In this document: piece after piece, positions 19,102 to 21,333 of the stretch
How the letters are laid out: every line of letters begins with the position of its first letter
Position numbering within the stretch: position 1 is the first letter of the stretch
Source: Glycocaulis sp.
GTDB lineage: Bacteria; Pseudomonadota; Alphaproteobacteria; Caulobacterales; Maricaulaceae
Direction: 5' to 3'
Length of the DNA: 64,000 bases
Assembly: GCA_022565665.1 (NCBI GenBank)
Contig: JAIUMI010000002.1
Span: 207,060 to 271,059, forward strand
Program-made: the position numbers and the translations under genes
Notes under the pieces: model-generated
Told to the model about the DNA's origin: nothing
Databases searched by the model: none
What the model saw: the letters and a program-made list of their open reading frames with translations, nothing else

Positions 19102-20133
19102 ATGCCGTTTCTGCGCACCAGCCTTGCCGCCTTCGCCGCTCTCGCCCTGGCCGGTTGCAGCCCGGCCTCCGAGCCGGAAGCGCCGGAAACACAGCCCGAA
19201 GCGGCCACCCCCTTTCCGACCCTGACCGGTGAGCTGCCGGCCATCGTCGCCCACCGGGGCGCGAGCGGGTATCTGCCTGAACACACCGAAGCGGCCTTCC
19301 AGCTGGCCTTCGACCAGGGCGCGGACATTCTTGAACCCGATCTGATGGTCTCGCGCGATGGTGTGCTGATCGTGCGCCACGACCCCTATCTCTCCACCAG
19401 TTCTGATGTCGCAGACCGGCCCGAATTTGCCGACCGCCGCCGCGAACTCATGGGCCGTGAGGACTGGTGGGTGATCGATTTCACCGCCGGGGAGCTGCAA
19501 TCGCTCAATGCGCGGCAGGTCTTCGAGGACCGCCCGCAGGAATATAATGACCAGTTCCCGATTATGACCTTCGGTGATTTTCTGGACATGGTCGACGCGA
19601 TGCAGGCACGCTGCAATTGCGACATCCCGGTCGAACCGGAAATCAAGCTGCCGGCAGAACATGCGGCCATGGGGCTTGATCCTCTGCCCATCCTGATCGC
19701 GGAGCTGGAGGCGCGCGGCCTCAATACCGAAGACTCGCTGGTTATCATCCAGTCATTCGATGCACCCTTCCTGGAGCGTCTGCGCCCGCTCACCCCGCTG
19801 CCTCTGGCCATGCTGCACTATGGTGATGCGCCGGGCGGGGACATGAACGGCTATTCGCTGGAACAGGTAGCGGAATTTGCCGATGCCATTGGCCCATATA
19901 AGGGCCTGCTGCTCAATCCTGACGGCTCCAGCACCGGCTATGTGGAGCGGGCCCACGCGCTGGGCCTTGTCGTTCATGCCTGGACCCACCGCGATGACCG
20001 GCCTTCAGTAATTGAAGGCGGAACCAGCGATGACGAGCTGCGCGCCCTGTTCGCGCTGGGCGTCGATGGGGTGTTCACCGATTTTCCCGATACGGCGGTG
20101 CGCATCCGCGACGACATGCTGCGCGGGGAATAG
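19102..20133 (+). CDS. glycerophosphodiester phosphodiesterase, lipoprotein
   Basis: 343-aa GDPD-family enzyme releasing sn-glycerol-3-phosphate from deacylated phospholipids. A lipobox ends at Cys19 (LALAGC), anchoring it in the envelope like GlpQ. Catalytic and metal motifs are present: IVAHRGASGYLPEHT with the paired His residues, ILEPDLMVSRDG, and VRHDPYLS. EPEIKLP and a late LVVHAWTHRDD complete the barrel. The start is the ATG after a GGGGG-containing leader. It precedes the Tat-exported oxidase by 60 nt. Confidence 0.92.
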   Translation: MPFLRTSLAAFAALALAGCSPASEPEAPETQPEAATPFPTLTGELPAIVAHRGASGYLPEHTEAAFQLAFDQGADILEPDLMVSRDGVLIVRHDPYLSTSSDVADRPEFADRRRELMGREDWWVIDFTAGELQSLNARQVFEDRPQEYNDQFPIMTFGDFLDMVDAMQARCNCDIPVEPEIKLPAEHAAMGLDPLPILIAELEARGLNTEDSLVIIQSFDAPFLERLRPLTPLPLAMLHYGDAPGGDMNGYSLEQVAEFADAIGPYKGLLLNPDGSSTGYVERAHALGLVVHAWTHRDDRPSVIEGGTSDDELRALFALGVDGVFTDFPDTAVRIRDDMLRGE

Positions 20134-20193
20134 ATTTTTCACGCCTGTGCGGGCAGGCTTCCTGCCGGATAACCGGCAGGGAACGCAAAACGC

Positions 20194-21333
20194 ATGGATC
20201 GCCGCTCGGCACTGAAACTGATCGCGGGCGCGGGGCTGGGCATGGGCGCCGCCCCGCTTGTCTCCGCGCGCACGCCTTCGCTCGATCAACCACCAAACTT
20301 CGTACCTGCCGACATCTCGCCCCGGCGCATTATCCGTCAGGTGGTGGGCCTGCGCCCGTTCCGCGAGCAAGGTTATGTGGTGCGCGCCGAGCGCTTTGAC
20401 CGGCGCAAGACGCTCGTTCACCATTACGGTCATGGCGGAGCGGGCGTGACCATGAGCTGGGGCACCGCCGTTGAGGCTGAGCGCGCACTTCTGGCCGCCA
20501 CCAATGAACGCTCTGTCGCCGTGCTGGGCTGCGGCGTGATCGGGCTGACCACCGCCCTGCTTCTGCGCCGCCGGGGCATGGACGTGACCATCTATGCCGA
20601 CGCGCTGCCGCCACACACCACGTCCAATATCGCAGGCGCGGTGTGGGGGCCGTCCAGCCTCTATCGCCGCCACGCGGTGGACGAGGCGTTTGTGGAGCGC
20701 TTCGTGACGGCGGCGCGCGTCAGCCAGCGCGCCTTCCAGCACTATGCCAACGATCCGCGCTACGGGGTGTACTGGCTGCGCCAGTATGATTTTTCCTTGC
20801 GCACGCCAGAAGGCGAGCGCACCCCATCTGTCCTGGATGATCTCTATCCCGGCCTCATCCGCCATACCGATCCTGACCGCTGGTTCGGCTATCCCAGCGT
20901 GGTTGAAAACCATGTACTGATGATCGATCCGGATATTTATCTGCGTGCCCTGATGGGCGATTTCGAGAATGCGGGCGGGCGCATCGTGACGGCCCGGTTC
21001 GAGGATGCGCGCGACATATCGCGGCTCTCCGAACGCGTGATTGTCAACTGCACCGGGCTCGGGGCACGTGAACTCTTCGGCGATGATGAGCTGCGGCCCA
21101 TGGCAGGCCAGCTGACCATGCTCCTGCCCCAGCCGGAGCTCGATTACGCCTATTCAGCCTTTGAGGGCGGGATACTCTACATGTTCCCGCGCAAGGGCTC
21201 TGTGGTGCTCGGCGGTACGACCGATCTGGATGTGGCCGATACTGTGCCGTCAGCGGAAGAAACCGCCCGCCAGCTGGAAGGCCATGCCCGGATTGCGCGG
21301 CGGCTTGCGGGGCTGGAGCGGGTAGGGGGTTAG
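20194..21333 (+). CDS. Tat-exported FAD-dependent D-amino-acid-oxidase-like protein, apparently circularly permuted
   Basis: 379 aa. A twin-arginine signal ([20 protein letters not shown]) indicates folded export. Residues about 51-98 hold the block that normally ends D-amino-acid oxidases (VGLRPFR..., then [17 protein letters not shown]). Only after this comes the FAD dinucleotide-binding motif [15 protein letters not shown] at about 110-124, followed by [16 protein letters not shown]. The protein stops shortly after [18 protein letters not shown], where the canonical enzyme would continue into its GxRPxR block. I read this as a circular permutation of the DAAO fold. Its stop overlaps the convergent purA stop by 4 nt. 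Confidence 0.85.

What the first reader, a model, noticed from the sequence alone, without database searches (positions are those of the whole stretch)
20194..21333. D-amino-acid-oxidase-like protein with circularly permuted domain order and a Tat signal
Seen: residues 51-98 carry VGLRPFR and [13 protein letters not shown], which close the usual DAAO sequence; the FAD motif GCGVIG comes after them (112-117); and the protein stops soon after the VVLGGTTD strand that normally leads into GxRPxR. Known: in D-amino-acid oxidases the order is FAD motif first and GxRPxR plus YGHGG last. Inference: the fold has been circularly permuted, so the old C-terminus now lies near the new N-terminus behind a twin-arginine signal.
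Basis: partly seen in the sequence, partly recalled or inferred. Interest (0 to 1): 0.72.

Follow-up and report, generated by a model that had tools for sequence, protein, structure and literature searches.

The report
Circularly permuted, exported D-amino-acid oxidase family
This gene encodes a relative of D-amino-acid oxidase whose two ends appear to have been swapped once in evolution, and the swapped form is shared by many bacteria, usually with an export signal attached to the new front end.

Summary
The 379-aa protein at 20194-21330 carries the closing block of D-amino-acid oxidase (GLRPFR, YGHGG, SWG) before its FAD motif and stops after the LGG strand. All seven PDB alignments printed (six DAAO/DDO chains) show the two blocks in exchanged order. 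It is no isolated oddity: 43 proteins collected here, the window's included, share this order. Relatives lie in twelve family codes of the window's class, one genome of another class and one actinobacterium. With all sequences in one register, one branch separates 41 permuted from 13 canonical proteins (96/92; 100/99 without four long rows), so a single event fits. The window keeps the carboxylate-binding Arg and Tyr. Twin Arg occurs in 35 of 43 and a lipobox pattern in 21 of 43: export is common but separable from the permutation. The AlphaFold model (pLDDT 64) supports helix-joint-FAD-strand continuity but cannot show that the block docks canonically. Activity, substrate and electron acceptor are untested. 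Ten paper searches (partial listings) showed no description. New variant of a known kind.

The parts
20194..21333 (+). permuted D-amino-acid-oxidase-like gene (379 aa plus stop)
   Evidence: Pfam DAO 1.1e-31, best stretch residues 108-362; conserved in genus, order and class
20194..20271 (+). twin-arginine (Tat) signal peptide, residues 1-26 (MDRRSALKL..., ending VSA before R)
   Evidence: sequence; R3 and R4 nearly invariant in alignment A1; RR in the first 25 residues in 35 of 43 proteins (rows); TatC in the own genome; motif and cleavage site judged by eye
20323..20499 (+). translocated old C-terminal block, residues 44-102: GLRPFR strand, HxYGHGG, SWG helix
   Evidence: residues 47-99 match 280-334 of human D-aspartate oxidase and residues 42-108 match 271-339 of pig DAAO; profile match
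20353..20355 (+). Arg54, equivalent of Arg283 (DAAO) and Arg278 (DDO), which bind the substrate carboxylate
   Evidence: aligned Arg in 41 of 41 permuted and 13 of 13 canonical rows; role of the residue from PMC8260693 passages
20500..20511 (+). new joint, residues 103-106, between the old C-terminal helix and the old N-terminal strand
   Evidence: helix 88-102 and strand 107-111 in the AlphaFold model, block means 88-92 pLDDT; near-constant length in 43 proteins
20512..21330 (+). old N-terminal FAD domain and body, residues 107-379, with GCGVIG at 112-117 (20527-20544)
21178..21180 (+). Tyr329, equivalent of Tyr228 (DAAO) and Tyr223 (DDO)
   Evidence: aligned Tyr in 23 of 41 permuted rows including the window, 11 of 13 canonical rows
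21202..21225 (+). VVLGGTTD strand, followed by a last helix and the new C-terminus

Best explanation
The gene encodes a circularly permuted member of the D-amino-acid oxidase / D-aspartate oxidase family. In one ancestral event the closing block of the enzyme (substrate-Arg strand, YGHGG turn, last helix) came to stand in front of the FAD strand; the old ends are joined by about four residues and the new ends lie between the last body helix and the Arg strand. Shown: homology of both blocks, exchanged order, clade-wide conservation, one separating branch on the tree, kept carboxylate-binding Arg and Tyr. Inferred: that the protein folds in the cytoplasm around FAD, is carried by the Tat system to the periplasm (in many relatives as a lipoprotein), and there oxidises free neutral D-amino acids, plausibly released from peptidoglycan, to the 2-oxo acid and ammonia with oxygen or a respiratory carrier as acceptor.
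For: Exchanged two-stretch matches in all seven printed alignments to six DAAO/DDO chains; 16 of 17 DAAO/DDO sequences in the profile search have two matched stretches. Order RPxR, YGHGG, GxGxxG in 42 of 43 proteins (L062 has RPFL in place of RPxR, otherwise the same) against the reverse in 10 of 10 canonical prokaryotic proteins (nine in the table, L111 from its printed sequence). Single separating branch, body and block each agreeing. Arg54-equivalent in 41 of 41 and both histidines of HxYGHGG in 41 of 41. Arg216 and Arg237, which make D-aspartate oxidase acid-specific (PMC8260693 passages), have no equivalents in the window protein, which points to neutral substrates. Tat motif and TatC. 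Foldseek: the first 33 PDB hits are DAAO or DDO (the four 4qfc/4qfd rows by recall, their printed titles being cut).
Against: No activity is known. In the model most of GLRPFR and residues 302-379, which include Tyr329, have pLDDT mostly below 50, so the active site is not seen. Tyr228 and the LGG motif are lost in an 18-row Caulobacter-type branch, so that branch may do other chemistry. Support for one branch falls to 90/80 with the body alone and 87/84 with the block alone. Gene neighbours show no consistent D-amino-acid theme; the Tat signal is absent in part of the clade.
Confidence: 0.78

Rival explanations
1. Same permuted fold, but a periplasmic dehydrogenase that hands electrons to cytochrome c or quinone rather than an oxidase making hydrogen peroxide.
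For: In Kozakia baliensis a cytochrome c gene starts 5 bp after the permuted gene, and hydrolase genes stand before it; a lipobox pattern in 21 of 43 proteins would place many at a membrane.
Against: A CxxCH protein was the next gene at only one of the 30 loci tabulated (rough ORF calls; some loci are copies of one region); family members of known function are oxidases (recalled).
Confidence: 0.35
2. The N-terminal block serves in trans: two chains exchange their blocks, so the protein is a domain-swapped dimer rather than a closed permuted monomer.
For: The model does not fix the block against the body.
Against: Short near-constant joint, 22 residues from W to GxGxxG in 29 of 43; canonical L099 has 12 residues from W to its C-end and 7 before the FAD motif, so only about 3 extra residues bridge the old ends, as expected if they lie side by side.
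Confidence: 0.1
3. The fold is permuted but the substrate is not a D-amino acid (glycine, an N-substituted amino acid or an amine).
For: PMC9844085 passages note that some glycine oxidases also carry GxRPxR and YGHGGxG; the active-site Tyr is lost in 18 of 41 rows.
Against: The window protein keeps both carboxylate-binding residues; the glycine oxidase ThiO model scores 50.1 against a cut-off of 250.8 bits.
Confidence: 0.25
4. Artefact: a mis-assembled, truncated or fused gene.
For: None found beyond the unusual order.
Against: Same order in 43 proteins from independent genomes, plasmids and viral contigs; within the genus four of five other genomes hold it at 87-92% identity and the fifth at 66%.
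Confidence: 0.01

Closest known systems
D-aspartate oxidase, human (PDB 6rkf)
   Same: Best sequence match, both blocks; carboxylate-binding Arg278 and Tyr223 have equivalents Arg54 and Tyr329
   Different: Block order reversed; Arg216 and Arg237 have no equivalents; no bacterial export signal
D-amino-acid oxidase, mammalian and fungal (PDB 1dao, 8hy5, 7ct4)
   Same: Both blocks match in two stretches; FAD motif, GxRPxR, YGHGG
   Different: Block order reversed; no bacterial export signal
Canonical bacterial and archaeal DAAO-like proteins (L050, L074, L098-L102, L111-L113)
   Same: RPx[RS] and [YC][GA]HGG signatures, similar length
   Different: FAD motif starts at residue 7-14 in the nine tabulated and the closing block comes last (L111 from its printed sequence); placed on the other side of one branch
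Glycine oxidase ThiO (NCBIfam TIGR02352)
   Same: DAO superfamily; 2.2e-13
   Different: Far below the family cut-off (50.1 of 250.8 bits)

Membership tests
D-amino-acid oxidase (DAAO/DDO) | GxGxxG FAD fingerprint | tested here: met
   GCGVIG 112-117; present after the block in 43 of 43
D-amino-acid oxidase (DAAO/DDO) | FAD fingerprint at the N-terminus, stated as required in PMC9844085 (passage) | tested here: not met
   Fingerprint follows the closing block in 43 of 43; hence filed as a permuted variant, not as an ordinary member
D-amino-acid oxidase (DAAO/DDO) | GxRPxR with the carboxylate-binding Arg | tested here: met
   GLRPFR 52-57; Arg 41 of 41, Pro 41 of 41
D-amino-acid oxidase (DAAO/DDO) | YGHGGxG bacterial signature | tested here: met
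   YGHGGAG 78-84
D-amino-acid oxidase (DAAO/DDO) | Active-site Tyr228/Tyr223 | tested here: met
   Tyr329 in the window; 23 of 41 permuted rows overall
D-amino-acid oxidase (DAAO/DDO) | Oxidation of D-amino acids | not testable with these tools
   needs protein
D-aspartate oxidase specificity | Arg216 and Arg237 equivalents | tested here: not met
   gap and Thr in the window
Natural circular permutation | Both parts homologous to the parent, each once, in rotated order | tested here: met
Natural circular permutation | Same three-dimensional fold with the old ends adjacent | tested here: inconclusive
   Foldseek's first 33 hits DAAO/DDO with query TM 0.42-0.50; model pLDDT 63.9, pTM 0.69; docking not seen; joint length fits
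Tat substrate | Twin Arg, hydrophobic stretch, Tat system in the host | tested here: met
   export itself not tested
Glycine oxidase ThiO | NCBIfam TIGR02352 cut-off | tested here: not met
   50.1 of 250.8 bits

The most novel reading that the evidence does not exclude
One ancient circular permutation founded the main DAAO lineage of the Alphaproteobacteria; by moving the chain start from the buried FAD strand to a loop before the Arg strand it made the enzyme easy to tether, and the lineage was then used chiefly as a Tat-exported, often lipid-anchored periplasmic D-amino-acid oxidase or dehydrogenase, with a Caulobacter-type branch remodelled for a different substrate.
Probability: 0.3. Interest if true: 0.75.

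Novelty: new variant of a known kind. Interest (0 to 1): 0.6.

Why it matters
DAAO is a textbook flavoenzyme whose FAD motif is said to have to be N-terminal (PMC9844085, passage). A natural, old and widespread rotated form shows that the fold tolerates new ends at a defined place, gives enzyme engineers a ready cut-point, shows why linear family models cover such proteins only in part (Pfam DAO's best stretch is residues 108-362, profile 2-291 of 353; a second stretch is counted but not placed), and suggests an overlooked periplasmic route for D-amino-acid turnover in alphaproteobacteria.

Tried and rejected
Considered and rejected: a truncated or mis-assembled gene (order conserved in 43 proteins); a second closing block downstream (none in the window); a duplication intermediate carrying the block at both ends (none among the 43, each with one YGHGG; not searched for beyond them); a conserved operon partner (neighbours differ between loci; only within the genus is a same-strand gene, GDPD-like by eye, kept upstream, in 5 of 6 genomes).

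Led nowhere: AlphaFold with three near-identical sequences (pLDDT 41); a viral scan with a canonical query (the same three contigs); phage records (no match); a canonical query over 299 genomes of the phylum, whose 8 matches at E 1e-10 are all places of permuted genes; ten paper searches: no paper on a permuted DAAO among the entries listed; five of them held more papers than were listed.

Full report
Observation. The ORF at 20194-21333 on the + strand encodes 379 residues. VGLRPFR (51-57) and [13 protein letters not shown] (78-90) precede the FAD motif GCGVIG (112-117), and the protein ends 35 residues after VVLGGTTD (337-344). Pfam's DAO model takes residues 108-362 as its best stretch, profile positions 2-291 of 353. 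phmmer against the PDB splits the match to human D-aspartate oxidase into two stretches in exchanged order: residues 105-358 on chain 12-261 (2.7e-17) and 47-99 on chain 280-334 (5e-8). A profile of 15 relatives gives two stretches in 16 of the 17 DAAO/DDO sequences listed (1c0i has one). Alignments were printed for six chains over the two calls, seven alignments, all in exchanged order; for the other chains only the best stretch is placed. In all 17 the main stretch starts within the first 23 residues of the chain, so none of these chains is itself permuted.

Clade-wide trait. Of 61 genomes (own, genus, family, order) 27 matched at E 1e-3; 19 of these carry a permuted copy, 6 of 6 in the genus; the other 8 are weaker, partial matches (best E 6.7e-12 to 9.7e-4). 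Of 385 genomes of the class 16 matched at 1e-10: 15 permuted (one, L051, divergent) and one canonical (G295, L050). Of 398 genomes sampled over the phylum 20 matched, all permuted, including one from another class, G626. These samples overlap and must not be added. A profile of six canonical proteins over the same 385 genomes matched 19: 13 permuted genes, one full canonical DAAO (G295), and 5 partial matches that I did not identify; it missed two of the 15 permuted ones. Both thresholds favour strong matches, so the 15 to 1 ratio is indicative only. Permuted copies also sit on plasmids of Rhizobium, Bradyrhizobium, Kozakia and Niveispirillum, in a Mesorhizobium plasmid (frame broken), in the Nonomuraea gerenzanensis record (an actinobacterium), and on three viral contigs that hold two distinct proteins. 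INPHARED phage records had none at E 1e-5.

Geometry of the rotation. The set of 43 is the window plus 42 relatives taken from these searches; some permuted copies seen (for example L012, L015, L043, L072) were left out of it. In 42 of 43 the order is RPxR, YGHGG, GxGxxG; L062 has RPFL in place of RPxR. Ten of ten canonical prokaryotic proteins have the reverse (nine in the table, L111 from its printed sequence). The joint from the W of SWG (Pro in L051) to GxGxxG is 21-28 residues, 22 in 29 of 43. A short canonical DAAO (L099) has 12 residues from W to its C-end and 7 before GxGxxG, so about three added residues bridge the old ends. The new break lies in the stretch that joins LGG to RPxR in canonical proteins (45 residues in 6 of the 8 measured, 51 and 61 in the others).

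One event. Permuted proteins were turned into canonical register, body and block aligned separately, and a tree built of 41 permuted rows (L002 and L003, near-copies, dropped) and 13 canonical rows (10 prokaryotic, 3 eukaryotic assembled from printed PDB stretches). One branch separates the two (96/92). Without four long rows it has 100/99; body alone 90/80 and block alone 87/84 (65 columns), neither of these two reaching the tool's star. Body and block thus tell the same history; nothing suggests that the block was borrowed from another oxidase. The canonical rows were few and taken from plasmid hits, G295 and the PDB. The root is unknown, so which order is older is not shown; that canonical order is found in eukaryotes, an archaeon and other bacteria makes the permuted one the likely derived state (inference).

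Structure. With five sequences (window, L031-L034) the model reached pLDDT 63.9 and pTM 0.69; three sequences gave 41. Helix 88-102, the joint and FAD strand 107-111 are confident (block means 88-92); most of GLRPFR and most of residues 302-379, Tyr329 among them, are not. Foldseek's first 33 hits are DAAO or DDO (query TM 0.42-0.50; four rows by recall). A permutation-aware superposition was not possible (no coordinates; the second aligner was unavailable), so docking of the block remains unproven.

Active site. PMC8260693 (passages) assigns the substrate carboxylate to Tyr223 and Arg278 in D-aspartate oxidase, Tyr228 and Arg283 in DAAO. The window keeps both, as Tyr329 and Arg54. Arg is kept in 41 of 41 permuted rows, Tyr in 23 of 41; the 18 losses are exactly the 18 rows of one branch, here called Caulobacter-type by inference, where the LGG pattern also gave no match. 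Arg216 and Arg237, which make D-aspartate oxidase acid-specific, have no equivalents in the window protein. This favours neutral D-amino acids but is weak evidence.

Export. The window protein starts MDRRSALKL with a hydrophobic stretch and an AxA-like end (by eye); the genome has TatC. RR occurs in the first 25 residues of 35 of 43 proteins, 33 of them with a hydrophobic stretch by my rule; a lipobox pattern occurs in 21 of 43. L016, L034 and L067-L070 have no signal by eye, L051 looks Sec-like (no RR), and the start of L065 is undetermined. Starts were chosen by me, so these counts carry some uncertainty. Export is thus common but separable from the permutation.

Context. Within the genus a same-strand gene (19102-20133, glycerophosphodiester-phosphodiesterase-like by eye) lies upstream in 5 of 6 genomes. 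Elsewhere neighbours vary. Kozakia has hydrolase genes upstream and cytochrome c 5 bp downstream. At L094 (G382) a PLP-dependent enzyme of the PALP family and an MFS transporter precede the gene on the same strand, about 10 bp before it: a lone hint of amino-acid metabolism. The Rhizobium and Bradyrhizobium copies lie between an FAD-binding oxidoreductase gene and a thiamine-diphosphate enzyme gene, and the Nonomuraea copy is followed by a thiamine-diphosphate enzyme.

Known or new. PMC9844085 (passages) says that GxGxxG must be at the N-terminus and gives GxRPxR and YGHGGxG as bacterial signatures; the stem 'permut' does not occur in it. PMC5169069 (passages) treats transfer of DAO genes; 'permut' does not occur there either. 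Ten searches of an open-access library listed no paper on a permuted DAAO; several listings were partial, and most subscription papers and all bioRxiv preprints are outside that library. PMC12502724 (passages) lists a 'D-amino acid oxidase' among proteins released by Asaia bogorensis; whether it is permuted was not checked. I rate this a new variant of a known kind.

Noticed in passing
window 20161-20180: Perfect hairpin CCTGCCGG-N4-CCGGCAGG between the upstream gene and the oxidase start; the 91-nt region 20110-20200 folds with z -4.4. One match in the window with two mismatches allowed (0.14 expected); exact matches among 134 fetched loci only in five copies of this same place. No T run; role unknown.
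   Followed up: partly
L033 1-2454; L034/L035 12-3092: Both distinct viral-contig copies of the permuted gene follow a terminase large-subunit gene (gap 33 bp or more by the start chosen, and about 510 bp); L033 also has ParA-like and portal-like ORFs (by eye), as if inserted in a gene-transfer-agent or prophage cluster.
   Followed up: partly
L017-L019, L038-L042, L044-L048, L059, L061, L062, L065, L071: An 18-row branch of permuted oxidases has lost the active-site Tyr and the LGG pattern but kept Arg and YGHGG: perhaps a different substrate.
   Followed up: partly
L071 1-7526: Kozakia baliensis plasmid cluster: serine hydrolases, a second FAD-dependent oxidoreductase, an alpha/beta hydrolase, the permuted oxidase and a cytochrome c, next to CocE-type hydrolase and TonB receptor genes; perhaps a periplasmic D-peptide or D-amino-acid route.
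   Followed up: no
L068 4518-8744; L069 4363-8690; L070 5929-8679: Signal-less permuted oxidases of Rhizobium and Bradyrhizobium lie between an FAD-binding oxidoreductase and a thiamine-diphosphate enzyme; the Nonomuraea copy is followed by a thiamine-diphosphate enzyme.
   Followed up: no
L094 4982-7217: MFS transporter and PALP-family PLP enzyme genes directly before a permuted oxidase; the PLP enzyme could be a racemase or dehydratase (recalled for the family).
   Followed up: no
L073 5989-7052: Mesorhizobium copy is annotated as two overlapping short genes; the frame breaks near the FAD motif.
   Followed up: no
L098 1477-2655: A haloarchaeal plasmid (Halostagnicola) carries a canonical-order DAAO-like gene beside an asparaginase gene.
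   Followed up: no
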